From Tribonema minus (taxonomy: Eukaryota; Sar; Xanthophyceae; Tribonematales; Tribonemataceae), in assembly GCA_017506865.1 (NCBI GenBank), contig JAFCMP010000005.1, positions 1 through 64,000 on the forward strand: a stretch of 64,000 bases of DNA. Direction: 5' to 3'. A program made the translations under genes and the position numbers. How positions within the stretch are numbered: the first letter of the stretch is position 1; the number at the start of each line of letters is the position of its first letter. A model generated the notes under the pieces. That model searched no databases and had not been told where the DNA came from. It saw only the letters and a list, made by a program, of their open reading frames with translations. Positions 1 to 47,256 of the stretch are shown in pieces.

Positions 1-630
1 CACGTGGACCCATATAGGACATCGAGGGTAGACCCGTGCGGTAGCGCGCTGTGTACACCAGCTTGCGCGCCGTACACTATCACGTCACGAACGCACCAGA
101 GTCTCCCGGGAGAACGCGCGGAGATCCTTTAGGGGGGACACGTGATAGCTTGTGTATCAGAAGTCACAGAAACGGTAGTGACTTGTCATAGACAGTGTTA
201 AGTGGTTGCACTCGAGAAGTCTCGAGAATAAGCGCACAAAGGGGCATGCGCTGCCACTTTTCTGGCTGTAACGGTTGCCTATGACTAGAATAAAACCCTA
301 CCGCATGCTCTTCCTTAGTAATTTGCTCTAAAGCTGATATGACTAGCTTTTTGCAAAGAAGGGGGAGAGGAGTCTAGCTTAAGAGCAAAGCGATGCAATT
401 TTGCTTCATGATTGTACGGCCGCAATTGTGTTGCAGAATTGACAACGCGGTCGATCTGTACAACTGCTATGTCAAACTGGCTGGCTTGCAGTTCAGAGTG
501 CCCTAGTAGCATCAGACCTCGTGCAGAGGCGTGCGGGGCATAGACGGCTCGTGCGCTGACAATTTAAAATCATGGTTTTGTCGTCGCACTCAGCTTCATG
601 CGCGTGAATCGTGTGCAGGATACACCATAA
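1..630 (+). other. 5' leader of the retrotransposon
   Basis: No convincing gene is present. The stretch runs directly into the Gag start and is probably untranslated leader plus whatever follows the 5' LTR. A purine run at 353-371 shares 14 bases with the purine tract at 10859-10872 near the 3' end. I saw no primer-binding site that I could assign to a tRNA. A short ATG frame at 611 overlaps the ORF1 start in another frame and is probably not used. Confidence 0.5.
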
Positions 631-3600
631 ATGGTCAAGACTGACCATGGCTCCAAGAAGCCAACGAGTGGGTCAAGCCGCAGCGGAGGTGTTAGTGGCG
701 GTGCTAGGCCTGCTGGCAGCACTGCTGCTAAGAGCAACAAGGGCGGTCAGCGCTCCGCTACGCGCCCCGCACCAAGCTCGGGTGACAAGCCGTCACGCCC
801 CCCTCCCCGGCCCGCGGCAGCGTCCGCACAACCCAGCCAGGTCGGTGCCAGCGCGCCCGACACGTCTGCCTCGGTACGGTCCACAGAATCAGTAGTCACT
901 GGTGCCGCACCTCCTTTTATACGTAATTTCGCTGAGTCCAGCGACGAGCCCGGCGGTGGCGGCTCAGAAGCCGAAGCCATAGTGGCAAGGCAGTTACGTT
1001 TGAGGCAGAAAAGAGAACAGCTTGCAGCAATGGGCATTATGCTTAGCGAAGCCCAGGTAGCAGAAGGCGAAGAAGCTTTTGCACGTGCAGCTGTTGAGAA
1101 AAAACTCGCACCAACGAAAAGCCCACGCAAGACACCGCGTGCAGCTGCAACAACCGCGCCAGTTGTGCCGGTAGCCGCGCCAGCTGTGCCGGCAGCGCCC
1201 GCGAAGTCTGCGGCGCCAGCACCTGCAAAGTCCACAGTGCCAGTTGCAGCACTGGTTGCGCCCGCGGTGGCCCCACCTAAGGTCGCGCGCAGTCAGCCGG
1301 CCAAGACGTCGGTTACGCGCGGTGCACGGGCCCCAGTTGCGGCGCCTGAAGTAGCACCGGCGGCTCCGACGCCTCAGAGCTCCAAGCCGTCAGCTAGGCT
1401 AGTGGCTCCCACATACTATACTGCACCAGCGAGGGCCCCTGAAGCCTCAGATAAATCGCCTGTGACGCAGCCGCGTCGGGGTGCAAGTGGTAAGGCGCGG
1501 CGTGTGCCAGTTGTGCCACGTAGCGTGCCAGTCGTGCAAAGTGCGCCAGTTGTGCCACGTAGCGCGCCCGTCATACCGCGAAAGCCAGTTGAGCAACAAG
1601 CGGCAGAGCGACGGAGGGCAGTTAGGCAACTGCTCGAGTCTTCTGAGTCATCTGGTGATGAGGGTGGTGTGCCCTTTGATCCTGAGGGCACAGATGAGGC
1701 TTATGACCAGTGGCGTGAGGGCATCGAAGCTCGCGTCGAGGCACATCAGCGAGCTGCCAAGGCCGCCAAAACGGCTGCAACGTTCGCCGAAATTCACGAG
1801 CGTGCCCTTTACGAACGCCTTGGCGAGCTCCAGCTTCGCGTCACCAGAGCTCCTAGTGAGAGCAAGAACATGGTGAAGAACTCACTGCTGCCGATGGCGC
1901 GGACGTTCGCTGCGGAGCAGGCCGAAGAGGTGCGCAAGCATAATGTTGCACTTCTGGAAAAACGTGGTCATGACTTCAAAGCTAGCCAGTTCGGCGAGCT
2001 GCTGACCATAGGTGAACACCGTAAGCGGTCCAATAGTTGGCATCGCTTCGCCTTCGGCACAGGCGACGGTGAGGAGGCGGAACTCTGGCGAATGCTAAGG
2101 GAGTTCGAGAACACGCCTCTGGTCACCGAGGAGGCGCGCCTAGCTGCGGACACTTACCCGCGCAGCCTGGTGACGCACCCGTTCCTCAACACTGACGGGC
2201 ACTCCGACACGTCGGACGACGACGCAGCCGGCGCAGCTGCGAGTCCGCGTGAAGATGGCGCAGTGGCCGGCGTAGCCACCAGCGCATCGGCTCTAGGTGA
2301 GAGCATTAGGACTGCGGGGGCAGTAGAACCCTCGTACTCCTCAGTTGCCATGACGGTGCGGAAACCCAAAGTTGACTTGAGGGGTTTCGGCGGCACTGGC
2401 GTCGTCATTGTAACGCAAGTAGGCAGGCTTGAAGCTTCCATTAGAGCTTTTGAGCGTAGCTGCGACACGCGTGGCGTGCCCAAGTCGGCCTACTCAGAAG
2501 CGCTGTTGCAGAGTCTGACCAAGAGTCAGTACGCTGATCTGACCAGCGCAGTCACCAATGAGCGCACGGGAATGCTAGAAACTCGTGCGTTTAGTGATTT
2601 GTCTTATGAGCAGATGGTGCAATGCCTTACGGCAGCGTACGATAGCACATCTGCCAGGCAAATAGCACTTCAAAAGTATCATGAACTCACGCGTACCTCC
2701 GGTACCAGCCCCGAAGTGTGGGGCAGGGAGGTAGTTGCAGCCGCGCACGACGCCGGCTGCGCGGACAACCAGCAAATTGTTCGTATGAAGTTCGTTCATG
2801 AACTGCCATTATGCTGCCGTCAAGAAGTAAACGGCATGTATGAGACCTGGGATCTAAAGAACACCGCTTTTCCCAAGGTCGTGGCAACTGCCCAGCAAAA
2901 GTGGCAGGCAGCGCCTATTGACGAGCGCGAGACTCGAAATGTTGTGTCTGCAATGGCCGCGGCACACATCTCAACCCCCCCCTACTCTGACACAGGCAAG
3001 CGCCCTGCCAAGGATGGGTGGAGCGTGGTCAGTAACGACCATCGCTATAAAAAGAAGAATAAGCTTTCGGCTGTTCGCGCTGTGTTGGCGGGGCTGAGCG
3101 CTAACGAGCGTCGCCAGCTTGGAGTCAGCGACCGCGCGCCGCAGGGCAAGGCTAGCTCCGCAGGCGATAACGGCGGCGGCGGAGCCAAGCCCCAGAGCAA
3201 CTTCAAGTGTCTTGGCTGCAGAGTGAACCAGGGAGACTGGGACACACTTATGCGGCACAAGACTACCTGCCCTCAGTGCATTGCGCACCGAAAGAGGATG
3301 GCAGAAAAGCACCGCCAAGGTGAATCACACTTGCAGTTGTCTGCTGCCTTGGTAGGAAGTGACTTGCCTGCTGCAAGTTCAGCATCAGCAATCAGTGAAT
3401 TGCCTGGTGTAGTTAGAGCAGATGCATGTTCGGCACAGGTAGCTGAGCATGCCACTGACGCTGTTTACGATGTCTCTTTGCGCGCACAGATGGCGGCAAT
3501 TGAGGGTGGGCCAGAGCCACCACCCAGAGTTATCAAACACGCGTCTATCTGCTGTGGGGCGCTAGGAGGCGCCATAGCTGGGGGTAAGTTGACCTCTAGA

Positions 3601-5580
3601 GCAGGTTTTGTAACACGCACAGTGCTTGCAGTTGACAAGAATGTCAAGGCAATTGAGGCTCTGCATGAAGTTCATCCAGAAGTGCCCACAATGACTGCAT
3701 GCATGACTGATGCGAAGGTTGTTGCACGTCTTCTTGACGAGAAACCTGACATCACCACCATCTCCCCGCCCTGCACAGATTTTTCGGCAGAGGGCAAGAA
3801 GGTCGAGGGCGAAGCTGCCGAGTGCACGGTCCATGCCGCACGGCTCATCGTGCGGGCCAAGCTTCGGGTGGTGTTGTATGAGAATGTGCCAGGAGTGCTA
3901 GTGTCACGCGCGTTTGCACGCGCAGTACGCATTCTCAAGTCGGCTGGTTACATGCTGTACATTGCCAAGTTAAAGGCTTCTGAGTTTGAAGTACCTTGCA
4001 GGAGGCAGAGGGTGTACATTGTCATAGTACCAGCAGGGGTGGCCTCACGTGAGGCGCTCCAGAGGTTCGGTGCGGTAATAAATACCAAGCGTTTACAAAG
4101 CAGACCCACATCTGTTCGCTCTCGCTTGCGCTGCCCCGAACGCACATTCTTCTTGCAACCACGCAGTGCTCAGCACCCTGGTGTTTTGGATGCTGATGGC
4201 TTGTTGCCTAGCCCAGTGCGCAGACTGCCTGGTAGGCCCACTGCGAGTTATGTTGCACATGCAAAAGACGCTGGTCCAGTGGCATCTGCCCGCTTGCTGT
4301 CGCTTGCGGAAATGGCAGTGCTCATGACGTATTATCATGAATTACCAGCGAGTGCATGCAGTAGTGATGTACGGCGTTACATTGCAGACTTGTTCATCCC
4401 AGAGATGGCATTTCACTTGTTCGTGGCAATTGAGGCCTCAGGCCTGTGCACACTGCCAGAACAACAGGTACGTTTGCCGCGTAGGTCAGACTCTACGTTG
4501 AGGCATTCAGTTGACTGCCCGCCCCCGTCTTGGTTGGCTGGTCAGAGTGGTTCGCTGGTGCAGGCCGCTACCGCGGTACACGCAGCGCCCTCGTCAAGTG
4601 CACACTGCTCAGCAGCAGTGGCGCGTAGCATACATGCAAAGGCGCATGATGCAGGGTATGCAGAGGTACCCATAATTCCGATGCGCAGTGCATGGGAAGA
4701 GCCAGAGGTAGACTTGGCTGTGGTGCAGCCCGGCATGGCTGACATCGTGGAAGTCGATGACTCTGACTCAGGGTCTGACTCTGAGTGGGACTCACAGTCA
4801 GTTATGAGCGTTTGCAGTAGCGCAGACGACATGGACATTGACACAGAAATCAGTGCTCCACCCATTGCGGCCGCAGCGGCACGCAAGAAGCTCGGCGGCG
4901 GTACAGACCCGCGCCTTGCCCCAGGTGAGTTGAAGGCAGCGCTCAGGCGCGCTGGCCTTGATGCTCAGTCTCTAGGCATATTAGACCATGTGCCAGGTGT
5001 CAGCAAGTTAGACACAGCCCCACCAGTGAGTGTGGCAGAGACAATTAAGAATCTCACAGAAGAGATCACAAAACCGAGGGAACCAGTCAAGTTACCTCAT
5101 GTAGACCTTGCAGTAGGGTCCCCTGAGCCTAGCTCGGTAGAGCGCTCCAAGTCGGAGGCTCCAGTGGAGTACATACGCCCAGTAGCCGGTGTTGTACCTC
5201 CAGGGCAGATGTTTGTGTCCGCGTCGTTACGCGTACAAAGCAACTCTCAGACGCCCAAAGAACTCTATGTGCGCGCCATGGTAGACTGCGGTGCGACCGT
5301 AACCATCATGGGCAAGCGCATTGCAGACAAGCTCCCCAACAGCTATGTATGTACACCTCAGCAAGGTGACTACACTGAGATCCTCTTGGCAGACGGCAAG
5401 ACGTCGCTGCAGATCAGTGGTGTGGTCAATGCATGGCTGCGGTTTAAGAACAAGATGTTCTTGCACAAGTTCTATGTGGTAAACGCACCCATGGACGTGC
5501 TCTTAGGTACGGATTTCTTTGCCCCGCATGGCTCAGTCATCTCGTATCACGGCGGTAGCCCAGCCTTCTTCCCAGGGTGA
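631..5580 (+). CDS. Retrotransposon ORF1: Gag - cytosine-5 DNA methyltransferase - aspartic protease
   Basis: 1,649 residues. Residues 1-330 are Ala/Pro/Ser-rich and disordered. Residues ~585-740 are helical and Gag-like. A Cys/His cluster (FKCLGC ... CPQC) at ~858-890 looks like a nucleic-acid-binding zinc finger. Residues ~970-1275 are a DNA cytosine methyltransferase. Residues ~1490-1649 are a retropepsin-like protease with DCGAT at 1552-1556 and a distal LLGTDFF motif. The frame ends at UGA 5578-5580, directly after the protease, and pol continues in the same frame. The start was taken at the first ATG of the open frame (ATGGTCAAGACT); upstream sequence supports no longer frame. A methyltransferase between nucleocapsid and protease is not part of the normal Ty3/gypsy plan and indicates capture by the element. 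Confidence 0.92.
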   Translation: MVKTDHGSKKPTSGSSRSGGVSGGARPAGSTAAKSNKGGQRSATRPAPSSGDKPSRPPPRPAAASAQPSQVGASAPDTSASVRSTESVVTGAAPPFIRNFAESSDEPGGGGSEAEAIVARQLRLRQKREQLAAMGIMLSEAQVAEGEEAFARAAVEKKLAPTKSPRKTPRAAATTAPVVPVAAPAVPAAPAKSAAPAPAKSTVPVAALVAPAVAPPKVARSQPAKTSVTRGARAPVAAPEVAPAAPTPQSSKPSARLVAPTYYTAPARAPEASDKSPVTQPRRGASGKARRVPVVPRSVPVVQSAPVVPRSAPVIPRKPVEQQAAERRRAVRQLLESSESSGDEGGVPFDPEGTDEAYDQWREGIEARVEAHQRAAKAAKTAATFAEIHERALYERLGELQLRVTRAPSESKNMVKNSLLPMARTFAAEQAEEVRKHNVALLEKRGHDFKASQFGELLTIGEHRKRSNSWHRFAFGTGDGEEAELWRMLREFENTPLVTEEARLAADTYPRSLVTHPFLNTDGHSDTSDDDAAGAAASPREDGAVAGVATSASALGESIRTAGAVEPSYSSVAMTVRKPKVDLRGFGGTGVVIVTQVGRLEASIRAFERSCDTRGVPKSAYSEALLQSLTKSQYADLTSAVTNERTGMLETRAFSDLSYEQMVQCLTAAYDSTSARQIALQKYHELTRTSGTSPEVWGREVVAAAHDAGCADNQQIVRMKFVHELPLCCRQEVNGMYETWDLKNTAFPKVVATAQQKWQAAPIDERETRNVVSAMAAAHISTPPYSDTGKRPAKDGWSVVSNDHRYKKKNKLSAVRAVLAGLSANERRQLGVSDRAPQGKASSAGDNGGGGAKPQSNFKCLGCRVNQGDWDTLMRHKTTCPQCIAHRKRMAEKHRQGESHLQLSAALVGSDLPAASSASAISELPGVVRADACSAQVAEHATDAVYDVSLRAQMAAIEGGPEPPPRVIKHASICCGALGGAIAGGKLTSRAGFVTRTVLAVDKNVKAIEALHEVHPEVPTMTACMTDAKVVARLLDEKPDITTISPPCTDFSAEGKKVEGEAAECTVHAARLIVRAKLRVVLYENVPGVLVSRAFARAVRILKSAGYMLYIAKLKASEFEVPCRRQRVYIVIVPAGVASREALQRFGAVINTKRLQSRPTSVRSRLRCPERTFFLQPRSAQHPGVLDADGLLPSPVRRLPGRPTASYVAHAKDAGPVASARLLSLAEMAVLMTYYHELPASACSSDVRRYIADLFIPEMAFHLFVAIEASGLCTLPEQQVRLPRRSDSTLRHSVDCPPPSWLAGQSGSLVQAATAVHAAPSSSAHCSAAVARSIHAKAHDAGYAEVPIIPMRSAWEEPEVDLAVVQPGMADIVEVDDSDSGSDSEWDSQSVMSVCSSADDMDIDTEISAPPIAAAAARKKLGGGTDPRLAPGELKAALRRAGLDAQSLGILDHVPGVSKLDTAPPVSVAETIKNLTEEITKPREPVKLPHVDLAVGSPEPSSVERSKSEAPVEYIRPVAGVVPPGQMFVSASLRVQSNSQTPKELYVRAMVDCGATVTIMGKRIADKLPNSYVCTPQQGDYTEILLADGKTSLQISGVVNAWLRFKNKMFLHKFYVVNAPMDVLLGTDFFAPHGSVISYHGGSPAFFPG
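3538..4455 (+). other. Embedded C5-cytosine DNA methyltransferase domain
   Basis: Lies within ORF1, residues ~970-1275. Motif I (SAM binding) reads ICCGALGGAIAGG. Motif IV is TISPPCTDFS with the catalytic Cys at residue 1048. Motif VI is YENVPGV (Glu1084). Motif VIII is RRQRVYIV (from Arg1124). Motif IX is RLLSLAEMAVLMTY (from ~1221) and a motif X-like segment begins near residue 1246. All are in the canonical order, with a short target-recognition region between VIII and IX. The family transfers methyl groups from SAM to cytosine C5. No BAH, CXXC, chromo or PHD domain is attached, so it resembles compact Dcm/viral-type enzymes more than host DNMT1, CMT or DNMT3. No catalytic residue is missing. 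Confidence 0.93.
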
Positions 5581-5583
5581 CTA
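5578..5583 (+). promoter_or_regulatory. Putative programmed stop-codon readthrough site (UGA CUA) between gag and pol
   Basis: The ORF1 stop TGA is followed immediately by CTA, and the downstream frame stays open in the same frame for 1,683 codons. UGA CUA is the classical efficient readthrough context of alphaviruses and several cellular genes. Readthrough would yield a single Gag-MTase-PR-RT-RH-INT polyprotein. No ATG suited to independent pol initiation lies near the junction (the first is in-frame at ~5608). Confidence 0.65.
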
Positions 5584-8500
5584 AAAGGTGTGGCCATACG
5601 CCCCATGCACGACAAGAATCGCGCAGACAACGCGAACGCGCATGCGGCAGCACTAGCCCGTTGCAAGGGCAATGGCAGCGCTGAGAGCACTGAGGCACCA
5701 GACAAGCCTCAGCAGTGCTCAGCTAGGATGGCATATAACACTGTACTGGCACCATCGTCGGAGACGATTGTGGAACTCACGCTGCTACCAAAGCCAAAGC
5801 GCGTGCAGCCCTATGAGGCATTGCTCATGCCACAAGAAACAGTGACTACAGAAATGATGAGAGGCAAAGGTGTTAAGGCAAATATCACCGCTCTCACTGT
5901 AAATGCCAGCGGCACGATATACGCTACATTGAGCAACACTTCAATGTACCCGGTTTACGTGCGCCGCAACACGTATTGGGGAAAAGTGACTCCAATTAAG
6001 GCTGATGATCTGCTAGAAGTGCAGACAGCTACTCAGCAGGCTCTAGAAGCCAAACTGCTAGTAATAGCAGCCAAAAGGCACTCTGAAAATGCTAAGTTAG
6101 TGGCAGAATTAGCTGCTAGCATAGGCAAGACTGCCAAAGAGGTTGCACAAGAAGTGCAACGGCTGGCAGACCTCAGCCAGCGCCACAATGACCAGCTAGA
6201 GAACTGCACAGATGCAGAGCTGGAGGAAATCCTTGTGAAAGATGGCAGGCTTGCGCCTCATTTGCAAGGAAGGGGGAAAGATGGGGTACTTTTGAAAACA
6301 AAAGCACTTGACATGCTAAAAAAGCACAGGAATGTCTTTGCTAAGGACCCTAAAAACCCTCGAGTCACTCAGCATTTTGAGATTGATGTTGACACTCAGA
6401 CGGCCGAGCCGGTGGCGGACAAGGCACGCCATTGGGCTTTCAAAGAAGCCGAGTACATCATGAAACAGATTCAGATGATGGCAAAGCGCCAACAGATTGA
6501 GCCATCAGCTAGTGCGTGGGCAAGCAACCCAGTACTAGTGGTTCAAGGCGACAAGATCCGCTTCTGCATAGACTTCAGGAAGTTGAATGCGGTCACGAAG
6601 CGTGATAGTCATGGCTTAGGCAACATGGATGACATGATGCGGGCTGTGCAAGGTGCGAGGATCTTATCTTCGTTAGATCTGGCAGCGGGTTACCATCAGA
6701 TCCCGCTGGCCAAGACGGCTAAGGCCAAGACGGCCTTCAGAGCCCCAGACGGCTCGTTGTGGCACTACAAGGTTGCGCCATTCGGGCTGGTGAACTTGCC
6801 AGCGCAGTTCACGAGATTGATGCACCAAGTGCTGGGAGATGCCTTAGGCTCCCACGCGCTAGTGTACATAGATGACGTGTTGGTGTATGGCACGGACATC
6901 GAGGAGCACATCGAGCAGTTAGATGATGTTCTTGGCCGCATAGGCGCGGCGGGCATGAGTGTATCTCGCCCAAAGTGTCAGCTGTTTCAAGCTGAAGTCA
7001 AGTTCCTAGGCCATATAGTTGGCGCCGCTGGAACAAGACCAGACCCTGACAAGGTCAAGGCCATGCTTGACATGAGCCCCCCACTGAAAGGCGGGGTACC
7101 AGACAAGCAGTTGGTACAAGTGGTTATGGGAGTGTTTAACTATTACAGGCGATATGTACCCAACTTTGGGGCGATATCAGAGCCTATAGTAGCCCTGACC
7201 AAGAACAAAGCAGTCATGGTTTGGGGGTCTGCGCAAGAGCGGGCTTTCAAGCGGCTGAAGAGTGCCATGTGCGACAGTCGCATAGTGATGCACCCAGATT
7301 TCAGTTTGCCTTTCGTATTGTACACCGACGCCTCCAAGACGGCGACGGCAGGTGTGCTTACACAGTTCAGACCTGTGAGTGAGGTCGAAAGGGCAACAGC
7401 GGGACAGCCATATGCTCACACGGGCAGGCGCCGCATAGCTGAAGGCGAGGAGGTCAGAGAAGTAGTCGTTGGCTACTTCAGCAAGCTGAACTCTGAACCC
7501 GACGCGAAGTTAGGAGCGACGGCAGTAGAGTGTCTGGCAGTAGTGCTGGCGCTCAACCACTTCAGGCCTTACATTTGGGGTAACCCCGTTACAGTGGTCA
7601 CAGATGCCGCTGCGCTCAGGTGGCTGTTGACGTTACAAGACTACAACGGCAAGCTACTAAGATGGGCCATGCGCATACAGGAGTATGACGTTACCATTCA
7701 GCACAGGCCTGGCAAAAGGAATGCCAATGCTGATGCCCCATCCAGGCTGCCACAGCAGGCAGAGTTAGATGCTGAGCGCTCTACGGAGCCAGCAGACGAA
7801 CAGTGGCCAGACGCAGTCCCGAGCATGGACGCACCGCCGTCAGGTGTGCGCTTTGCGGACGAGGCCACGAGAACGCACAAAGTGGCCGACGTGAACAGCT
7901 GTCGTGGGTACACGGCGGACGCACGTTACGGGCCAGCGTTCAAGTTCAACGAGGCCGTCGCCATATCAGGCGTAGTGGTCGCTAGGTTAGCCGCTCTGAC
8001 AGCTGTGGAGCTAGCGCAGTTGTTGGACAGAAGGCTAGATGACTCCACGGTGGAGGAAGCTGAGGTTGATGAAGTTGAGATCAACACAGCGTATGCAGAG
8101 CCAGTCAATAAGTACACCGGCTCGTGGGAGCATTCCCAAGCGCAGCGACTCTTAAGGCAGATCGCATGCGACAGGCGACGCAGCATCAGCTCAAAGAGGG
8201 CCAAGTGCAGCGTCACCACGGCTCAGCCGGCGGCAGACTCATTGGAAGAAGGAGAGATTCCAGAGGTAGAAGCTGCTGCTGATGCAGATGAGGCAGACGA
8301 GCCACCGGATGGCGAAGCTGTTTTAGGCAAGCGCAAGAAGACGCTGCCAAGGCCAGAAGTAGTGCAGTTGCTGAAACGGGTGGCCGAGGGAGACTCGCCT
8401 GCCACGCCAGCAATGCTCAGCAGAGCCGCATTTCTTGAAGTTCAGAAAGCGGACGGGTTCTGTCAAGCAGTGAGCAAGATGCTCATTGAGGGTGACATAC

Positions 8501-10632
8501 CCGAAGGCGCGGAGCTAGCCGCTCACGTCTTAGCACAGAGAGAGCAGTATACCATCGAGGAAGATGGCCTCTTAGTGCACAGTTCAACGAGCCACCCCAA
8601 GAGAGGTATGGTGTTGTTGCAGTGGGTCGTGCCAGTGGTGCTACGAACCCTAGTCATGCGTCTAGGGCATGATGACGCAAGCGCTATGCATTGCGGCATA
8701 GGCGCTACGCACACGCGTATATTCGAGAGGTATTTCTGGCCTGGTATGGGCGCGGACATACGAACGTACGTGCAGAGCTGCATGACATGCCTCGAGCGCA
8801 AACGCGCCAGCTCCACTCAGTACAGACAGTGGTTAGCTGAGCCCGTGCGTATGTGGCAGCGGCTCAACATAGATATCACAGAGCCTGGTATACAGTCCAC
8901 GGCAGGGCACAGATATGTCCTGACCATAGTGGAAGCAAGGTCCGGCTTCGTGTGGCTCTCGGCCATGCACGGCCAGGGAACGCGCGATGTTACCCCGCAC
9001 CTCATGACAGTGTTCCTTGAGGTTGGAGCATTAGTGGAGGAACTATGCTCAGACAAGGGCAAAGTCTTCCTTGGCAATGTGGTCAGTGACCTTTGCAGAG
9101 CGTTTAAAGTTAAACGCATAGAGACCAGTGCATACCACCCACAGACCAATGGTGTGGCAGAACATGCAAATGGTCGTGCTAAGAAGGCACTAGCATCTTG
9201 GGTCAGCGCTCAGCAGACAAACTGGCACGAAGGCTTAGAGCTCGTACAGTTTGTGTTGAGGACAACTCCCCGAGATGAAACAGGTTTAACACCCTTTTTC
9301 TGTGTGTACGGTCGGGAAGCTTCACTGCCACATGATGCATTTATGCACGAGGATGGCAGCAGGAAGTTGGACCTACACGAAGAGATTGAGCACAAGTTAG
9401 ATATGCTTGAGCTTGCAGACAAGGTGGTGTCAAAGGCGCTGCAAGTACGCGCCCAGAAGATCACCAAGCGCAATGAAGCTATTAAGCGCGCGGTGAAGTT
9501 CGCCGTCGGTGACTATGTCATGATACGGCTACCCAGGCAAAGAGACAGGTCGGCTGCTCTTGATGCCAGGTATGTGGGGCCTTGGCAGATCGAGGCTCGC
9601 ACAGGCGAATCAGGCCTCTCATTCATCTGCAGGATGATGGGCAGAAGAGTTAGACACACCACAGCTCATGTTGAGAACATGAAGCCCTTCCACATGAGGC
9701 CTAGTGCCATGTTGGAGCCAGGTGTGCACGCCATGCTGAGCCCCCGACAAGTGGAGGAGCTAGCAGATGGTGAGAAGTTATACGGAGTTCTGGACCGCCA
9801 AGCGGGCCCCAATGGCTCGTGGCAGTACAAATGGCAGTCCATAGATGGCAAGTCACATGCGTGGGTGTCAGAGGATGACATGCTGCAAGAAGTGACGCCA
9901 TGGACCTTAGACGCTTTTCACGCGCTCTATGAGCTGCGCAACGAAGGAAGGTTGCCGGCATATGCCATCAGGCCCACACCTAAGGAGGATGCTGGCATGC
10001 GCCGAGAGAGCGCGCTGCAACTCTATCCCATCGGCACGGCGCTGGTCAGGGAGCACAGAACGGTAGTGGGCGGCCCGATCACTTACGTGTGGGGGGCCGT
10101 TAAGAACTTTGTGTCACCATACTGGAGGATCAGATATGAGGATGGTGAGTGGGAACAGATGACCCGTACACAGGTCAAGTCTGCCATACAGTTGGCAGAG
10201 GCAGTGCGTGACAAAGCCAAGAAGTTGCAGGCGCAAAGCGCGCCGGACAGCGCGAGTAGTGCAAGTCCCAACTCTCAGGTCACGCGAGGTCTGCCACCTT
10301 CCCAAACTAGTTCTGAGGCAAGCTCAGCCCAAGATTCTGCTCAGCCGCAGATCTCGCTGGTAAGGCTGCCCAAACTGCCATCTGATTTCGGATCAGACTT
10401 TGAGGGTGAAGTGATCTGGTATCACTTTCCAACAGGCTGGAGCCGCGGCGTCCTGGGTGAGTTTTACCCCGCCAGGTCGCAGTTCACGTTTGATGTACTA
10501 TTCGACGGTGAGAAGACTGTCAGGCGTATGCGCTTACGTCCGGGTGACTACCGCACGCCAAAAGACAGCCCATACTCATCATGGAACGTGCTCGCCGCTC
10601 GCAGTATATCCTCAGAGGAGAGTGCGAAGTAG
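5581..10632 (+). CDS. Retrotransposon pol: reverse transcriptase, RNase H, integrase, C-terminal reader-like modules
   Basis: Numbering is from Val at 5590. RT contains FCIDFRKLN, SSLDLAAGYHQIPL and the catalytic YIDD at 426-429. RNase H follows with YTDAS (Asp580) and TDAAALRWLL. Integrase has an HHCC-like zinc module (GHDDASAMHCGIG ... CMTCLERK) and catalytic D1095, D1155 and E1191 (DD35E spacing), then a GPY-type module (VGPWQIEARTGESG). Beyond this are a chromodomain-like stretch (YKWQSIDGKSHAWVSEDDM) and two short Trp/Tyr-rich modules (YWRIRYEDGEWEQM and FTFDVLFDGEKTVRRM) that look like Tudor/chromo barrels. No stop or frameshift interrupts the frame. Translation most likely enters by readthrough of the preceding UGA. 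Confidence 0.93.
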   Translation, partial: LKGVAIRPMHDKNRADNANAHAAALARCKGNGSAESTEAPDKPQQCSARMAYNTVLAPSSETIVELTLLPKPKRVQPYEALLMPQETVTTEMMRGKGVKANITALTVNASGTIYATLSNTSMYPVYVRRNTYWGKVTPIKADDLLEVQTATQQALEAKLLVIAAKRHSENAKLVAELAASIGKTAKEVAQEVQRLADLSQRHNDQLENCTDAELEEILVKDGRLAPHLQGRGKDGVLLKTKALDMLKKHRNVFAKDPKNPRVTQHFEIDVDTQTAEPVADKARHWAFKEAEYIMKQIQMMAKRQQIEPSASAWASNPVLVVQGDKIRFCIDFRKLNAVTKRDSHGLGNMDDMMRAVQGARILSSLDLAAGYHQIPLAKTAKAKTAFRAPDGSLWHYKVAPFGLVNLPAQFTRLMHQVLGDALGSHALVYIDDVLVYGTDIEEHIEQLDDVLGRIGAAGMSVSRPKCQLFQAEVKFLGHIVGAAGTRPDPDKVKAMLDMSPPLKGGVPDKQLVQVVMGVFNYYRRYVPNFGAISEPIVALTKNKAVMVWGSAQERAFKRLKSAMCDSRIVMHPDFSLPFVLYTDASKTATAGVLTQFRPVSEVERATAGQPYAHTGRRRIAEGEEVREVVVGYFSKLNSEPDAKLGATAVECLAVVLALNHFRPYIWGNPVTVVTDAAALRWLLTLQDYNGKLLRWAMRIQEYDVTIQHRPGKRNANADAPSRLPQQAELDAERSTEPADEQWPDAVPSMDAPPSGVRFADEATRTHKVADVNSCRGYTADARYGPAFKFNEAVAISGVVVARLAALTAVELAQLLDRRLDDSTVEEAEVDEVEINTAYAEPVNKYTGSWEHSQAQRLLRQIACDRRRSISSKRAKCSVTTAQPAADSLEEGEIPEVEAAADADEADEPPDGEAVLGKRKKTLPRPEVVQLLKRVAEGDSPATPAMLSRAAFLEVQKADGFCQAVSKMLIEGDIPEGAELAAHVLAQREQYTIEEDGLLVHSSTSHPKRGMVLLQWVVPVVLRTLVMRLGHDDASAMHCGIGATHTRIFERYFWPGMGADIRTYVQSCMTCLERKRASSTQYRQWLAEPVRMWQRLNIDITEPGIQSTAGHRYVLTIVEARSGFVWLSAMHGQGTRDVTPHLMTVFLEVGALVEELCSDKGKVFLGNVVSDLCRAFKVKRIETSAYHPQTNGVAEHANGRAKKALASWVSAQQTNWHEGLELVQFVLRTTPRDETGLTPFFCVYGREASLPHDAFMHEDGSRKLDLHEEIEHKLDMLELADKVVSKALQVRAQKITKRNEAIKRAVKFAVGDYVMIRLPRQRDRSAALDARYVGPWQIEARTGESGLSFICRMMGRRVRHTTAHVENMKPFHMRPSAMLEPGVHAMLSPRQVEELADGEKLYGVLDRQAGPNGSWQYKWQSIDGKSHAWVSEDDMLQEVTPWTLDAFHALYELRNEGRLPAYAIRPTPKEDAGMRRESALQLYPIGTALVREHRTVVGGPITYVWGAVKNFVSPYWRIRYEDGEWEQMTRTQVKSAIQLAEAVRDKAKKLQAQSAPDSASSASPNSQVTRGLPPSQTSSEASSAQDSAQPQISLVRLPKLPSDFGSDFEGEVIWYHFPTGWSRGVLGEFYPARSQFTFDVLFDGEKTVRRMRLRPGDYRTPKDSPYSSWNVLAARSISSEESAK

Positions 10633-11277
10633 TTGTGGGGACTCAAGTTGAGTCAAAGCTGAGGCCGGCGACTCCCTTTTCCTGCAGAGAGGATTTCCCT
10701 GACTAGCAGGTTTGCCTCCCAGGTTTTTAATGGGGTTTCCAACCAGTTCTATATTGGCCTCCATGCTTAGTAGTGCACTTAGTGCGAGCATGCTGCAACT
10801 ACACTAGGGACCGCGATCTGCTGCTTCGAGTTCAAGTCCGCATCGAGGGCGATGCTCAGCAAAGAAGGGGGATCTGATACGGCTTGGGGGTGTATTCAGA
10901 CAGTTACAGGCAGTTACACCTCACAGGTTGGCACAGGTCTCAGTAGACCTGTGTAGTCGGTGTAGACCTTGACATGTGATTGAGAGCTGGCCTGACCTTA
11001 GTTGAAGGCAGGTGCAACTAGTTGGGTCACATGCCAAAGGGCACATCAAAGTAGTATGCACAGCATCAGAACCTCCCCTGCAAGCAGCAAGCCCGAACCT
11101 TGCTGTGCCAGCCGTCGTCCAGCCCCAAGCCTTCCGTCTCTCAGCAGCAGAATAAAATATCCGGTAAGCGCATCGCGTTTCCTTTCGCATAACATTTCAT
11201 TTGAGTTCTCTGAAGCGTGTCTACTTGTTTTGCTCTTCCAGCTTGCTTGTTTGCATTCATGACAGCATCACAAGGTA
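10633..11277 (+). repeat. 3' untranslated region and putative 3' LTR of the retrotransposon
   Basis: About 240 bases of noncoding sequence follow the pol stop, ending in a purine tract (10859-10873). TGATACGG at 10875 is a typical gypsy LTR start. AATAAA occurs near 11152, and the sequence ends with a CA near 11272 before hAT-like coding sequence begins. LTR identity cannot be confirmed because the partner LTR is outside the window. Confidence 0.45.
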
Positions 11278-11595
11278 AGCCGCTTCACTCGATACAGGAC
11301 AGTTGCACACATTCCCCACACAGAGAACCCACTACACTGGTGGAGGGACCATGGTGCTGTGTCGTTTCCCATGATGGCAAAGTTGGCTAGGCAGATATTG
11401 GCCATACCAGCTACCGAAGCAGCATCGGAGAGGGTATTCTCTGATGGTGGCCAAGTCGTAAGTGACCTCAGGTGGAATCTAGGCAATGATAACATCTCTA
11501 CTCTTGTGTTTCTCAAGAAGAACTGGCGCCTAGTGGAGGACTACGGCTTTAATGCAGGAGCACGCTGTGTAGCACGCAAGCGGACTATGTCATGA
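11278..11595 (+). pseudogene. hAT transposase C-terminal dimerisation domain fragment
   Basis: An open frame reads ...NPLHWWRDHGAVSFPMMAK followed by LARQILAIPATEAASERVFS and ends near FLKKNWRLVEDYGFN before the stop at 11595. This is the hAT family dimerisation signature: an LxWW-like start, then IPAT.A.SERVFS, then a terminal W. The catalytic part of the transposase is missing, so this is a 5'-truncated remnant, possibly truncated by insertion of the adjacent retrotransposon. A last exon of an element with distant upstream exons cannot be excluded. Confidence 0.85.
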
Positions 11596-12549
11596 GCCCT
11601 CCATTCAGACACAGACATCTTGCTAGACCAATGGTGTGCAGGGCAGCAGCAGGCAGCGCAACATCACTGCGCAACTAGTCAATACACACAAATATGCTCT
11701 CATTGCCATCACTTAGCTGTGCACATGACATTATTATGGTGTGTGTTTGTCACTGTTTGGTGATGAACTTCGTTGTTGAACTTAACAGTTTGTGGCATGC
11801 CCCCTCCTGCTGACCTGGCCCTCTAGCAGCTTTGCATTTATGACTTTGCACTGTTGTTTTGACGTTAGTGGCAGATGGATGGCTTGTGTATGCTGGCTAC
11901 TGTGTATGGGCTCCGCTCAGGAGTCCGCTGTTGCTCACGTCATACAGCCTGGTCCAGTTCCAGTGGTCAACCTGTGCTTTTAAACAGTACACGTGGGTGC
12001 ACACAACGATAAATGCCCACAAGACCATGATAATGCATGCTAATGATAATGCAATGATTAAAGTAGGTGTTTAGGGGTGTTTGACAGCCTATTTGAGATT
12101 CGAACTGTTCGAACGTTCGTTCGAAAAATTCTGTTTGTTCGAAAAGTGTTCGAACAGTTTCGATCGGAACCCCTATAAATTTTGCACTCCAAACTGCTCG
12201 CCTGCGTGCCGGTAATCGGCCATATCTCGCACTGCCATTCATGGCCGGTGATCACTGCGGGACACTCGGAGTGAGCCCCGAGTCAATCAGGGTGCTCGGA
12301 GCACTCCGCACTGCAAGCAGTCCAGGGACTGCAGCACTGGCAATCCAGGCACCGGACAGATCCATGATGGGCGTGTCGCTACGAAGTTGAAGTGGGCGCC
12401 AAAAAAATCAAATCACACAGATCTTTCAGCTGCTGCGCATGGCCCTCGCTGCCGCCTGTGCTGCAGCTGTGCCTGTTGGTGTCACGGCACTGCTGTTCAT
12501 CAAATCCAATCTTTTGTGCTCTTAGGGCACCCGCAAGGCTTCGACGACG
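11596..12549. other. Intergenic stretch; only a palindromic mini-element seen
   Basis: AT-richer than its neighbours, with no credible coding sequence. It contains the palindromic element at 12072-12175. Short frames around 12387-12616 are shadows leading into the ankyrin-like gene. Confidence 0.5.
12072..12175. repeat. ~104-bp palindromic mini-element (MITE-like)
   Basis: Perfect 7-bp terminal inverted repeats TAGGGGT (12072-12078) and ACCCCTA (12169-12175) enclose an imperfect palindrome built from TTCGAA/TGTTCGAAC repeats. The whole segment could fold into one hairpin. The terminal TAGGGGT resembles hAT termini, and an hAT transposase remnant lies 500 bp upstream, so a hAT-derived MITE is plausible. 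I saw no clear 8-bp target duplication. Confidence 0.55.
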
Positions 12550-14524
12550 ATGGCAAACACGCGCGGCGGTGCGAGTAAGGCCAAGAAGAAGCAGCCCAGC
12601 ATCCCCGCCAGCCTAGCATCGGCATCCCTGCGAGCAGAGCTAGCGAAGGCAAAAGCAGCCCACGCTGTCTGCGCCAAGCGCCTGCGTCATTCCGAACTGC
12701 AGCTGCATGAGCATCTGCAGCAGCAGCGCCAGGAGTCAGGTGCTTTCTCTTTTCTGCTGGAACGCCACTCCGCCATGATCAACGCCGTGCTCGCCTTCGT
12801 TGGACCTGGCAGCTGGCTGTACGTCGCTGGCGTCAGCCGGGGAGTCCGGGGCCTCTACCTCACAGCCGTGGCCCAGAGCAACCCTGATGCACTGTACGCC
12901 ACCACCTTCAAGGCAGCCGTGGCGACGGTGGCGACATTCGACCTGGCGACGACGGCAAACCTCAGCCCTCACAGGAAAGGCTTCAGCCTCGCTGCCGGCG
13001 AGCACGCGCCCATGCAGGTGCTGGAGCGGGCCAGGTCCATCGCCTTCCCCTTCGTGCGCCCCTCTTTCGCCAGGGGAGCCGCGCGCGGCACGCGCCTCGA
13101 CGTCCTCTTCTGGCAGCGGCAGCACTTCTGCTTCGACTTCCCGTACAGCACGCTGCGCTCCGTACTGACAGAGGCCGCGGCGCGCGGCGACGCCCTGATC
13201 CTCCGCTGGGCATGGTCGGAAGCCAGCGACCACGACAGCTTCGACTTCAGCACTGACGATCTGTGCGACGCGGCCGCCGCCGCCGGACACCTGCTCGCGC
13301 TGCAGTGGCTGCTCGCCACCTGCACGCCGTACCACGCGGAGGTGGCCAAGCCGCCGCTGCTGAACGCGGCCGCGGGCGGAGGCCACCGCCACGTCATGCG
13401 CTGGCTCGAGGAGGCGTGGAATGTGCGCTGCGATGAGGAGACGGCGTACGCGGCGAGCGGGGCGGGCAGTGGGCGCTGGCGAGGGAGCTCATGGCGCAGC
13501 CGGGGAGCCGCCACACGCTGAGCGGCGTGTGCCAGGCGCTGGTCACAGGTATGGGAAGAGTTGCGACTGTGGAGCGCCCCTCCTTTTGACCCATATCATG
13601 TTGAGAACTTCAAATGGCTCGTGGCACTGCTGCGGCCGTTGCAATGATGTCAGCTGCGGCGCACACTCGCTATTGCTTGTGCATCTTGCAACTTGTGGGG
13701 CACATCCAGGCGCAGTTAGGTGGTGCACTGCGCCTTACTGTCATATATGCTGCTGCATTGTGCCTTGCTGCACCGCATGTTGCAAGTTGACTTTAAGACT
13801 GACGACCTGCCACGCATGCTCTGATGACATGTCTTCAGCGGATGCGCAGCGCTCCTTCATCCACCACTGAATTTTGGGCACACATACCTGCTGACAATGT
13901 TGCTGTGCGCGGGTCGCAGCGCAGCCAACTGCAACTGCAATGGGTGGCCATGGCATGCTCAGCGGCGCTCTGGCTTGCAGCATCAGCAACACACCTAGCA
14001 AAGCTTCATGCCCTCGCAAGCCTCAAAATGCCAAGAAGGTCCTGAGCATCTCTGCCCCGCCCTTAAGCGGCGCCTTACTTGCCGCCGCCGCTGCAGGCAA
14101 GACGACGACGCCGGAGCAGCTGCGTTGGGTGCGCGCGCGCGGCGGCGGCGACTGGAGCGCGGGCGGGCGCAACGACATGCTGCGCCGTGCCATGCAGGCG
14201 GGCAACTTCGCCATCGTAGACTACCTCGTCGCGGAGGGCGCGGAGTGGCCGCCGCTGGTCGATGAAAACTTCAACTTGAAGTACGCGCTGCCGACGCTGA
14301 AGGCGGCGGTCGCGCGCCGCTGCCCGTGGGGCGTGTGGGGCCCTGAGGTGTGCGCGCGGCTGAGGGGGAGGCTGGGGGAGAGGCGCGGCGGCGGCGCGGC
14401 GGCAGCGGCAGCGCTTGCGTGGGCGCACGCGGCGGGCGCGCCGTGCCACTGCGCGCTGCGCGACTCCAGCGAGGAGGAGGGGGGGGAGGGGGAGGAGGAG
14501 GAGGAGGAGGAGGAGGGCGTGTGA
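12550..14524 (+). CDS. Ankyrin-repeat-like protein, two exons, with an apparent 1-nt frameshift
   Basis: Exon 1 is 12550-13548 and exon 2 is 14097-14524. The donor is CACAG|GTATGG and the acceptor CTGCAG|GC; a phase-1 junction joins them. After a basic N-terminus come a coiled segment and a hydrophobic FVGPGSWLYVAGVSRGVRGL motif resembling the N-terminal module of many stramenopile ankyrin proteins. Degenerate ankyrin helices follow (GHLLALQWLLATC, GGGHRHVMRWLEEAW, GQWALARELMAQPGS, GNFAIVDYLVAEGAEWP). The C-terminus is poly-acidic (Glu/Gly). The frame changes by one base between about 13450 and 13466; with one extra base the protein would read smoothly into GQWALARELMA. This is either an assembly indel or a real disabling mutation. 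The likely role is protein-protein binding. Confidence 0.7.
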
Positions 14525-26712: not shown

Positions 26713-28791
26713 TTACACTGCCGTGGCAACCGGAGTGGCGACCGCAGCGCCTGTGCCCTCAGAAGAGGAGGCCGCGCCACTCCCCGGCTGCGGACGCTCT
26801 GGCTCAGCCGCCGCTGCGGCTGCTGCCGCCGCTGCTGCCGCCGTCTCCGCCGCTGCTGCTGTTGCTGCTGTTGGCGCTGCTGCTGCTGCCGCCGCCGCCG
26901 CCGCTGCTGCCTCTGGCTCCATCGCTGAACCTCTGCCCTCCTCAATGTCACCAGTGGCGGCATGCGGCGGCCGCAGCGAGTGCAGCGACGCTCTCAGCTC
27001 TTCGTCCAAAGTGAGCGAACTCGTGCCGTGAAGGGAGAGCCGCTCCAAAATGGGGGCGGGATCCGCGTCATGACCGTCCTTTTTGGCGGGCCACACGGGG
27101 CCCACACACAGCGGGCACGTGTCCTTGCCGGTCTCGAGCCTGCGGCAAGAGGGGAGGCGCGTGAAATGGATATGAGGCAGCTGTACGATGGTCTGTCTGT
27201 AGCCCACTGCATGAGTTCACGAACGTTCGGTCTCGAGCATGCGCAAGAAAGGGGGTCGTGAGGAGAGGATCATGAGACAGCCGTGCCGTGACGTGTTGTG
27301 GCGCCCCGAGTACGTTAATAAACGTTTTGCCTGTAGTGGACTTGCAGAGGGATGCAGTCGCACAGTGAAACAAGATGCGGCGCAGCGAGCTGGTGCAAGA
27401 AACTTTGCACAAGCTGCAGACGAAGCGCATGACATATACTTGATGAGCACCGACATCAAGCTGCAAGGTGACAGACAGGTGCTGAGTTAGAGTAAGGGTT
27501 GCTAACTTATGGCAATAATGCACGCCTTGGTGCATCACACTGACACCAAGGCCTGCGTCTACCACTGCAGAAGTCGTGAAGTCTACAGCCAGCACGTGCA
27601 TGTGCAGCACGTGGGGTGTGCCTTCCCAGCAACTCAAGTGCCTATGCCCTGCTCACGCATACAGTATAGAAGTACCACTTAAGACGATGATCATAAGACC
27701 AGATGCTGTGCCTCAAGCAGTGCCGCCAGCAAAGCGTCCATGGGTGATGTCCGCTGCTTGAGGGCAACGGTGAAGATGCCAGTTACAGTTGCGCGAACAC
27801 TACATAGATTGTCCTGCTGAAGCAACGTTGAGGTGGCAAGACAAAATACGGCTCGATGGGTAGCCGTTGCTGTAGCAACGACCGCATGAGGGGTCGGTAA
27901 GCCAGGAACACTGCAGTTACAGTTTACACTTGCTGTACTGCTGACTGGGGGCCATGATGAGCAGCAACGCTTGCGGGATGTACGGTGCTGCAAAGAGGCA
28001 GGCCATGTACCATGTTGGTCGATTATGGCACCAATGTACACATATCACGCTGCCTAGGCAAGCATGACGCACTCACCCGCCAACTGCGATGCAAACATCA
28101 ATACAGCATGAAAAACCTTGTCTACTGGCACTCACCAGTGATCGATGCACGCCGCGTGGTACAGGTGCTTGCACGGCAGCCGCCGCACCTCCTGCCCCGT
28201 CTCGAAGTTGCTCAGGCACACGACGCACTCCCTCGACACCAGGTGGCACCCCGCTCCCAGGCACGCAGGGCACTTCTTGCTGACCACCAGCCCCGAGATT
28301 GAGCAGCGCGCTTCCCCTTCCCCATCCCCAGTTGCTGATTGATCCCAGCACCCCGTGCAGCAAGCCGAGGATCCCCATTTGAAGTGAGGCACCTTGCAGA
28401 AGCGAGCCGCTGCTTTGCGTCTGCGCCATGCAAAGAACGCTCGCCGCGCCAGAAGCCACGCTAGGATCAGCGCCAGGGACGCCGCGGCGACGGTCACTAT
28501 GTACATGTACGATAGCCTCGGATTTGAGGCACAGGCGTTGGCGGGGTTGGCTCCGCAGCTGGCGCCAGGAGGGGCGCACGCGCCGCTGCACCACACGCAG
28601 TGCCCCCCTTCAGGAGGAATGAACGAGGCGCATTGATTGCAGCTAGCAATGGCCGAGCAGCTGGTCGTGCTCGCAACTTGAGCAGGCGTGCTTCCAGGGG
28701 GAGCCAATGCACTGGTGAAGCTCGCGACTTGCGCCAACAGCAACACCAGGAATGTGCCCCAGGGCAGCGGCGTTCCAGGTGGTCGCCGCAT
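26713..28791 (-). CDS. Membrane RING-H2 finger protein (putative E3 ubiquitin ligase)
   Basis: Exon 1 is 28791-28136 and exon 2 is 27139-26713; donor CACTG|GTGAGT, acceptor GCCGCAG|GCTC; the split codon gives Trp. An N-terminal signal peptide (WGTFLVLLLAQVASF) precedes a Cys-rich lumenal region (CSAIASCNQC ... CVWCSGAC) that looks like a PSI/plexin-type module. One transmembrane helix follows (VTVAAASLALILAWLLA), then a cytosolic RING-H2: CVVCLSNFETG, LPCKHLYHAACIDHW, and across the splice LETGKDTCPLC. All eight zinc ligands are present. The C-terminal half is low complexity with a long polyalanine tract. RING-H2 proteins of this layout recruit E2 enzymes at endomembranes; the substrate is unknown. 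Start chosen at MRRPPG because the signal peptide follows at once. Confidence 0.88.
27129..27270 (-). repeat. Diverged duplicate of the RING exon-2 acceptor region
   Basis: The junction sequence CGGTCTCGAGCCTGCGGCAAG (plus strand, 27130-27150) recurs at ~27229-27250 as CGGTCTCGAGCATGCGCAAG, with similar flanking purines (AAGGGGG...CGTGA). On the minus strand the copy reads FLAHARDRTF where the original region reads LLPQARDRQG in the same frame. Confidence 0.7.

Positions 28792-36800: not shown

Positions 36801-47256
<10,456 letters not shown>

What the first reader, a model, noticed from the sequence alone, without database searches (positions are those of the whole stretch)
3538..4455. Complete cytosine-5 DNA methyltransferase captured inside the Gag-protease frame of a gypsy retrotransposon
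The sequence directly shows motifs I, IV (PPC, Cys1048), VI (ENV), VIII (RRQR), IX and X in order, uninterrupted, within an intact Gag-PR reading frame. Acquisition of 5mC methyltransferases by Ty3/gypsy elements has been described in a few protist and algal lineages (work by de Mendoza and colleagues), so the principle is known. This position between nucleocapsid and protease, and a compact Dcm/viral-like domain without host reader modules, may be an independent capture. The inferred benefit is self-methylation of new cDNA or copies, to hide from or exploit host silencing.
Basis: partly seen in the sequence, partly recalled or inferred. Interest (0 to 1): 0.88.

Follow-up and report, generated by a model that had tools for sequence, protein, structure and literature searches.

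The report
Jumping gene carrying a DNA-methylating enzyme
A family of retrovirus-like jumping genes in what is probably an alga carries, inside its particle-forming protein, a complete enzyme for putting methyl marks on DNA, an enzyme that resembles bacterial protection enzymes more than the host-type enzymes described in such elements before.

Summary
Window 3538-4455 encodes a full-length C5-cytosine methyltransferase (MTase) in frame between a zinc finger and the protease of a Ty3/gypsy LTR retrotransposon. The element runs to 11287 and its 5' LTR lies off the contig. Three searches of the same 158 Mb genome give 269 MTase loci (fragments and redundant contigs included). They form at least two deep MTase clades, in gypsy lineages whose reverse transcriptases (RTs) are only about 30% identical. 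Copies are young (LTR pairs identical in 3 of 7 elements), catalytic motifs are intact (PPC 30/30, ENV 30/30) and pN/pS over the MTase is 0.17. By sequence the enzyme is not DNMT3-like, unlike KnitGypsy-Dnmt3 and SymbioDIRS-Dnmt3. Its best full-length relatives are type II restriction-modification MTases (LlaJI-like); over motifs I-VIII alone, DNMT2 scores best among solved structures. Deep tree placement is unresolved. The most likely role is methylation of the element's own cDNA or new copies. CpG transitions are about 3x enriched among copies, but host enzymes could explain that. No activity was tested. A new variant of a known kind.

The parts
1..10874 (+). internal region of the LTR element (5' LTR and first bases lie off the contig; same insertion on contig C458 has the 5' LTR at C458:1145-1557)
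631..5580 (+). ORF: Gag-like region, zinc finger, MTase, linker, protease (1649 aa)
2341..2940 (+). probable Gag capsid region (by position and eye only)
   Evidence: not supported by homology or fold: no Pfam match, single-sequence model pLDDT 40
3208..3279 (+). C2HC-type zinc finger upstream of the MTase; similar finger in elements C69, C290, C323, C457, not found in the frames of C524 and C105
   Evidence: sequence
3538..4455 (+). C5-cytosine MTase domain (residues 970-1275)
3544..3570 (+). motif I (SICCGALGG)
   Evidence: sequence
3766..3774 (+). motif IV PPC, Cys1048; PPC in 30 of 30 copies
3880..3888 (+). motif VI ENV; 30 of 30 copies
4000..4011 (+). motif VIII RRQR
   Evidence: one search scored the four residues RQRV (29 of 30; RQWV in 1)
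4288..4419 (+). motif IX and X region (LSLAEMAVLMTYYHELP ... IADLFIPEMA)
   Evidence: aligned to DNMT2, weakly, and to a restriction-type MTase
4456..5250 (+). linker with acidic/Ser stretches; the metagenome protein P0002 shows the MTase end plus a similar linker (by eye)
5269..5520 (+). aspartic protease (DCGA active site), below Pfam cut-off
5578..5580 (+). in-frame TGA between protease and Pol; stop in 3 of 30 copies (two of them the same insertion), sense in 26, gap in 1
5590..10632 (+). Pol ORF: RT, RNase H, integrase (1680 aa), same frame as the Gag-PR ORF
6550..7020 (+). reverse transcriptase (RVT_1)
7297..7686 (+). RNase H
8629..9141 (+). integrase zinc-binding and core domains (core below cut-off)
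10861..10874 (+). polypurine tract AAAGAAGGGGGATC
10875..11287 (+). 3' LTR, 413 bp, TG...CA; 413/413 identical to the 5' LTR on C458
11288..11291 (+). target-site duplication CTCG (same 4 bp precede the 5' LTR on C458)

Best explanation
This is a recently active Ty3/gypsy retrotransposon family with a functional-looking C5-cytosine MTase built into its Gag-PR polyprotein. Shown: anatomy, copy number, young copies, constraint on the enzyme, no DNMT3 similarity. Inferred: because the MTase sits between the Gag-side finger and the protease it is made with the structural protein and enters the particle, where (or after release by the protease) it methylates the reverse-transcribed cDNA or the new insertion. 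The element then arrives already carrying the host's CpG-type mark and is treated as resident, tolerable DNA. The enzyme was probably taken long ago from a restriction-modification-type (Dcm/LlaJI-like) MTase, before the clade-1 elements diversified. A second gypsy lineage in the same genome carries a different MTase of the same broad type.
For: Full-length domain with the catalytic motifs. 131 own-genome matches; 269 loci in three searches, fragments and redundant contigs included. LTR pairs identical in C3, C516 and C290. Pooled pN/pS 0.17 for the MTase against 0.28 Gag, 0.54 finger region, 0.69 linker, in the 30 best copies. 79 of 150 RT rows have an MTase 1-4.5 kb upstream on the same strand. 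MTase and RT trees of seven elements are not significantly in conflict (AU p 0.07 both ways). CpG transitions 2.9x those at other C, leave-one-out 2.87-3.02 (per site 24% against 9-12%). Full-length match to PADLOC MTase_II PDLC03270, E 1.3e-23, residues 26-305, and to a LlaJI-like MTase, 27% over 270 aligned columns.
Against: No activity, expression or methylation data. CpG decay may be due to host enzymes; flanking host DNA has a similar CpG o/e (elements 0.80-0.85, flanks 0.67-0.89). The 30 copies compared were the best protein hits, which lowers pN; and for the linker the median over 75 pairs with 10 or more synonymous differences is 0.26, not 0.69 (MTase median 0.17 over 265 pairs, Gag 0.27 over 77), so the contrast with the linker is weaker than the pooled figures suggest. 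Deep tree nodes are weak: the node that parts clade 2 from the reference enzymes has 39.5/49. PADLOC holds defence proteins only, so eukaryotic DNMTs could not compete there, and among PDB chains DNMT2, not a bacterial enzyme, scores best. DNMT4, DNMT6, SymbioLINE and KnitGypsy enzymes were not available. 71 of the 150 RT rows have no MTase in my lists.
Confidence: 0.5

Rival explanations
1. The MTase acts on RNA (the genomic RNA or the tRNA primer) in the particle, like DNMT2, rather than on DNA.
For: The clade-1 profile's best PDB matches are DNMT2 tRNA MTases (52 bits; M.HhaI 40, DNMT1/CMT 15-27); the clade-2 profile's best is also DNMT2 (35 bits); the best Foldseek match is human DNMT2 (E 1.9e-8). 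LTR elements are tRNA-primed; a TGG primer site follows the LTR.
Against: The profile match covers mainly motifs I-VIII. The CFT motif of DNMT2 (recalled) is absent from 9 of 9 clade members. Clade 1 does not group with DNMT2 in the tree. Structural Z does not single out DNMT2 (M.HhaI 16.3, best DNMT2 15.0). The primer tRNA could not be identified.
Confidence: 0.15
2. Self-limitation: the MTase marks new copies for silencing and so reduces harm to the host, benefiting the element indirectly.
For: CpG-biased decay of copies; slowing of transposition is one of the options discussed in PMC5890265.
Against: Copies are young and numerous, so any restraint is weak; no expression data.
Confidence: 0.2
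3. The domain is a passenger kept as a structural, nucleic-acid-binding part of Gag, with no catalysis needed.
For: The zinc finger is unlike a retroviral knuckle and Gag is poorly conserved between families; motif IV is relaxed to TPC, APC or SSC in other families.
Against: The catalytic Cys is invariant in 9 of 9 family representatives, PPC and ENV in 30 of 30 copies; the MTase has the lowest pN/pS of the pieces measured (copies chosen by MTase similarity).
Confidence: 0.1
4. Assembly chimera or chance ORF fusion.
For: None found beyond the window's own copy lying at a contig end.
Against: 131 matches across the genome; the order MTase, PR, RT, integrase recurs in fetched elements C69, C290, C323, C457; 4-bp target duplications.
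Confidence: 0.01

Closest known systems
KnitGypsy-Dnmt3 (Klebsormidium nitens; de Mendoza 2018, PMC5890265)
   Same: LTR gypsy element with an intron-less C5 MTase in its polyprotein, under purifying selection
   Different: Its enzyme is DNMT3-clade and is described in the Pol ORF; here no DNMT3 similarity was found and the MTase lies before the protease. Its copy number was not given in what I read (said to be fewer than in Symbiodinium), and its sequences could not be compared.
SymbioDIRS-Dnmt3 and SymbioLINE-Dnmt (Symbiodinium; same paper)
   Same: Hundreds of mostly intron-less MTases carried by retroelements in one algal genome
   Different: Other element classes; the DIRS enzyme is DNMT3. 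The SymbioLINE enzyme is an orphan lineage not available here, so kinship with it is untested.
LlaJI-type restriction-modification MTases (PMC1459862, abstract read; fecal contig MT837117.1)
   Same: Full-length similarity of the window MTase including the target-recognition part
   Different: Free-standing enzymes beside restriction genes; in the tree the LlaJI-like ones form their own 100/100 group apart from the element MTases
DNMT2 / tRNA C38 MTases
   Same: Best PDB sequence match over motifs I-VIII
   Different: No CFT motif (recalled hallmark); separate clade
Dam-carrying DIRS elements and a Sola DNA transposon with a ParB-methyltransferase protein (named in PMC5890265 and PMC12477816)
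   Same: Transposons with their own DNA methylase
   Different: Adenine or N4-cytosine type methylases, not C5-cytosine enzymes

Membership tests
Ty3/gypsy LTR retrotransposon | Pol order RT - RNase H - integrase | tested here: met
Ty3/gypsy LTR retrotransposon | LTR pair TG...CA with short target duplication | tested here: met
   413-bp LTRs, 4-bp duplications CTCG, CTAG, TTCG in the window family; CTTT and CAAT read by eye in C457 and C524; none recognised at the ends printed for C290 and C323
Ty3/gypsy LTR retrotransposon | Gag with CCHC knuckle | tested here: inconclusive
   different finger type; no Pfam Gag match; not all gypsy Gags have one (recalled)
C5-cytosine MTase (PF00145) | motifs I, IV, VI, VIII, IX/X in order and the fold | tested here: met
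   motif I is CCGALGG and motif X is IADLFIPEMA, both variant; model pLDDT 56
C5-cytosine MTase (PF00145) | methyl transfer to cytosine | not testable with these tools
   needs an assay
DNMT3 (as in KnitGypsy-Dnmt3, SymbioDIRS-Dnmt3) | catalytic domain closest to DNMT3 | tested here: not met
   52 PDB sequences at E<=10 with the clade-1 profile, none named DNMT3, although a DNMT3A control finds 44 DNMT3, DNMT3L or DRM-type sequences in the same library; HMMER's filters could still hide a weak match
KnitGypsy-Dnmt3 | MTase inside the Pol ORF | tested here: inconclusive
   upstream of PR; in 26 of 30 copies the window's stop is absent, so Gag-MTase-PR-Pol can be one frame; the domain order of KnitGypsy is in a figure that I could not see
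DNMT2 | CFT motif (recalled) | tested here: not met
   absent in 9 of 9
LlaJI-like type II MTase | groups with LlaJI-like MTases | tested here: not met
   LlaJI-like group 100/100 without the element clades; deep order unresolved
LlaJI-like type II MTase | full-length profile match including target-recognition region | tested here: met
   PDLC03270 best for window, C290, C524 and L051 (to residue 251 of 322 in L051); PDLC03378 best and PDLC03270 second for C69 and L053; clade 2 best with PDLC03234 (L054) and PDLC03378 (L049)
SymbioLINE orphan DNMT | same MTase clade | not tested
   sequences not held

The most novel reading that the evidence does not exclude
Gypsy retrotransposons twice took up restriction-modification-type (not host DNMT-type) cytosine MTases and made them an integral part of the particle, so that the cDNA leaves the particle already methylated: a eukaryotic retroelement using the bacterial 'self' mark logic, in a host genome whose methylation may be largely written by its transposons.
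Probability: 0.25. Interest if true: 0.82.

Novelty: new variant of a known kind. Interest (0 to 1): 0.62.

Why it matters
It adds a different enzyme type, and probably a further host group, to the few described retrotransposons with their own 5mC writer, at high copy number and with young copies whose catalytic motifs are intact. That makes the open question of what such writers do for a retroelement directly testable: nanopore 5mC maps of copies of different ages, and an assay of one compact 318-residue domain.

Tried and rejected
Assembly chimera: rejected. DNMT3 membership: rejected by sequence; DNMT3 is also absent from the 50 entries shown of the fold list, which by that tool's note excludes nothing. 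DNMT2 membership: rejected on the CFT motif and the tree, though profile scores favour DNMT2 among PDB chains. Module swapping between elements, suggested by different rank orders of identity in MTase and RT: not significant (AU p 0.07). Viral source: no relatives in IMG/VR for three single-protein queries, the window MTase, L050 and L049; none in bacterial genomes for clade 2. These scans look for short peptide patterns and reach close relatives only; the clade-1 alignment was too diverse to scan with. Search of 5.8 billion proteins: 3 hits with the single domain, none with the region of the long protein, 8 with the alignment, of which 6 look like environmental relatives of these elements and 2 are distant solo MTases. 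Avoidance of the LlaJI target GACGC/GCGTC: none seen (18 against 14.2 and 11 against 12.7 expected in the element). Gag fold: single-sequence model too poor (pLDDT 40). Host name: a paper search for the assembly size gave nothing; Tribonema was only a guess from an ankyrin-type gene, not shown. Prior-art searches; host searches; LlaJI search 124. A first pN/pS run and identity run are void because minus-strand loci were not turned; one search replaces them.

Full report
What is there. The window is the first 64 kb of contig C5 of an unnamed 158,181,000-base, 554-contig genome. Its first 11,287 bases are a Ty3/gypsy LTR retrotransposon that runs off the contig start. One open frame (631-5580, 1649 aa) holds a Gag-like region, a C2HC zinc finger, a C5-cytosine MTase and an aspartic protease. 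After an in-frame TGA the same frame continues (5590-10632) with RT, RNase H and integrase. The 3' LTR is 10875-11287, 413 bp, TG...CA, followed by CTCG. Contig C458 carries the same insertion (11,874 aligned columns, 99.9% identical) with the 5' LTR preceded by CTCG. Copies on C3 and C516 have identical 413-bp LTR pairs and other 4-bp duplications (CTAG, TTCG). A polypurine tract precedes the 3' LTR and a TGG primer site follows the 5' LTR.

It is not a chimera. The domain finds 131 matches in its own genome (129 of 438 candidates scored), in blocks of 79-100%, 49-55% and 38-42% identity. Two more queries from other families gave 126 and 111 matches. Merged by position (all 131 rows, all 111, and the 65 of 126 rows that I judged not shared) they make 269 loci. 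That number includes fragments, redundant contigs such as C458, and some clade-2 rows at 32-38% identity that may be something else. Of 150 RT rows typed (150 of 1416 candidates scored there), 79 have an MTase 1-4.5 kb upstream on the same strand and 71 have none in these lists; none of the 82 clade-2 loci has one of these RT rows downstream.

Two lineages. Clade 1 (window, C69, C290, C323, C457, C524, C105, L050, L051, L053) is 100/100 supported; clade 2 (two sequences, L049, L054) also. They are 21-22% identical to the window enzyme. The RTs of seven clade-1 elements are 63-87% identical. A piece 1.35 kb downstream of the clade-2 MTase L054, in the same frame and fully open, is a gypsy RT/RNase H (L056; the bases between were not read, but the frame around L054 is reported as 2758 codons). 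It is 26-32% identical to the clade-1 elements over matches of 200 residues or more and 46-51% over two short pieces of 61-70. So two distant gypsy lineages in this genome carry distinct MTases. Within clade 1 the MTase and RT trees do not conflict significantly (AU p 0.07 each way, seven elements), as expected if one capture preceded their divergence. MTases diverge faster than RTs (same call).

Constraint and age. In the 30 best copies (27 distinct), pooled pN/pS is 0.17 in the MTase, 0.28 in Gag, 0.54 in the finger region and 0.69 in the linker. Medians over pairs with 10 or more synonymous differences are 0.17 (265 pairs), 0.27 (77), 0.53 (39) and 0.26 (75), so the linker contrast is uncertain. 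PR and the start of Pol align poorly in these loci and gave 0.65-0.76, which I do not interpret. The choice of copies by MTase similarity lowers pN in the MTase. PPC and ENV are intact in 30 of 30 and RQRV in 29 of 30. The TGA at 5578 is a stop in 3 of 30 copies, two of which are the same insertion; 26 have a sense codon and 1 a gap. LTR pairs are identical in 3 of the 7 elements with a pair measured (C3, C516, C290) and 98.1-99.8% in the others.

Signs of methylation. Among close pairs of copies the transition rate at CpG is 2.9 times that at other cytosines, leave-one-out 2.87-3.02. Counted per site, CG>TG is variable at 24% of sites (60 of 247), against CA>TA 10% (35 of 342), CC>TC 9% (20 of 214) and CT>TT 12% (27 of 218). 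This fits CpG methylation of the copies but does not say by whom, and no host sequence outside the elements was available as a control for it. CpG o/e of the elements (0.80-0.85) is like that of flanking DNA (0.67-0.89).

What the enzyme resembles. Against PDB sequences the clade-1 profile scores DNMT2 52, an E. coli prophage enzyme 41, M.HhaI 40, M.HaeIII 31, CMT-type (ZMET2) 26.5 and DNMT1 22 bits or less; no sequence named DNMT3 is among the 52 at E<=10, although a DNMT3A control finds 44 DNMT3, DNMT3L or DRM-type sequences in the library. Those matches are mainly to motifs I-VIII. The clade-2 profile also scores DNMT2 best, 35 bits. Over its full length, target-recognition part included, the window enzyme matches PADLOC MTase_II PDLC03270 (E 1.3e-23, residues 26-305), the family that both tandem MTases of fecal contig MT837117.1 match best. 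That contig has two 5mC-MTases, an McrB-like gene and a second restriction gene, the gene content of LlaJI (PMC1459862, abstract read). Identity to its first MTase is 27% over 270 columns. Phage and plasmid hits listed are at most 31% identical. In the tree the LlaJI-like enzymes form their own group and the deep order is unresolved (PDB references there cover motifs I-VIII only). I therefore say 'restriction-modification-like', not 'LlaJI member'. PADLOC lacks eukaryotic DNMTs, and DNMT4, DNMT6, SymbioLINE and KnitGypsy sequences were not at hand.

Distribution. In 5.8 billion proteins the alignment found 8: six metagenome proteins akin to clade 1, one of which (P0002) also shares the downstream linker by eye, and two distant solo enzymes. 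So related elements exist elsewhere in the environment. The host is probably an ochrophyte alga: that rests only on my memory of 18S V4 signatures against L055 and was not tested.

Prior work. PMC5890265 (outline, sections 9 and 11 and the first two of seven parts read) reports KnitGypsy-Dnmt3, SymbioDIRS-Dnmt3 and SymbioLINE-Dnmt, and de novo CG methylation by retroelement enzymes (abstract); its SymbioLINE enzyme did not methylate DNA in yeast (discussion). PMC12344493 (passages) says DNMT3s sit in 'LTR Copia and DIRS' elements. [quoted passage not shown] it does not separate Dam from Dcm or gypsy from DIRS in the passage, so I cannot tell whether a case like this one is meant. PMC9998398 (passages), on microeukaryote DNMTs, showed no MTase-bearing gypsy in the passages seen; PMC12477816 (passages) describes a Sola DNA transposon with an N4C/N6A methylase in Ectocarpus. 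Beyond the PMC6338049 sentence, my searches (mostly listings) showed no report of C5-MTase gypsy elements in stramenopiles, nor of a non-DNMT3 MTase in a gypsy element; most subscription papers are not in that library.

Mechanism. Shown: position, intact motifs, constraint, youth. Inferred: packaging with Gag, action on cDNA or new copies, benefit by carrying a host-like mark. Alternatives are an RNA/tRNA target (DNMT2-like scores), self-limitation, or a structural role; see rivals.

Noticed in passing
L054, L056 (contig C66:337977-341300) and L049: A second, different C5-MTase clade in a distant gypsy lineage of the same genome (RT about 30% identical to the window family's).
   Followed up: partly
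window 1-11870 and contig C458: C458 repeats the start of C5 at 99.9% including flank and target duplication: probably the other haplotype or a redundant contig.
   Followed up: yes
window 10090-10179: Integrase C-terminus has a weak Tudor-like match (PTM_DIR17_Tudor, E 0.014, below cut-off) and an SH3_Tf2-1-like stretch before it (E 0.023): a possible chromatin-reading tail.
   Followed up: no
contig C311:3919: An open frame of 6208 codons around an MTase and RT, about twice the usual element frame; perhaps two elements in tandem in frame.
   Followed up: no
L057 (MT837117.1), 1988-7586: Record labelled Bacteriophage sp. (unverified, fecal) holds a LlaJI-like cassette: two 5mC-MTases, McrB-like and a second restriction gene.
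   Followed up: partly
L052 (contig C223:937814-938950): Solo MTase ORF holding the best genomic match to PF00145, unlike the element enzymes; possible host enzyme or contaminant.
   Followed up: no
window 12550-13521: ORF with ankyrin-like repeats next to the element, by eye reminiscent of brown/yellow-green algal families (recalled, untested).
   Followed up: no
window 39429-40688 (minus): Piece resembling the KA1 domain of AMPK/SnRK1 kinases, by eye; the host gene looks split by introns.
   Followed up: no
window 28132-29085 (minus): RING-finger-like stretch at the end of an ORF, by eye.
   Followed up: no
L055 (contig C259:30000-30400): 18S fragment with apparent single-base losses in conserved stretches (judged from memory), perhaps an rDNA pseudogene or assembly error.
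   Followed up: no
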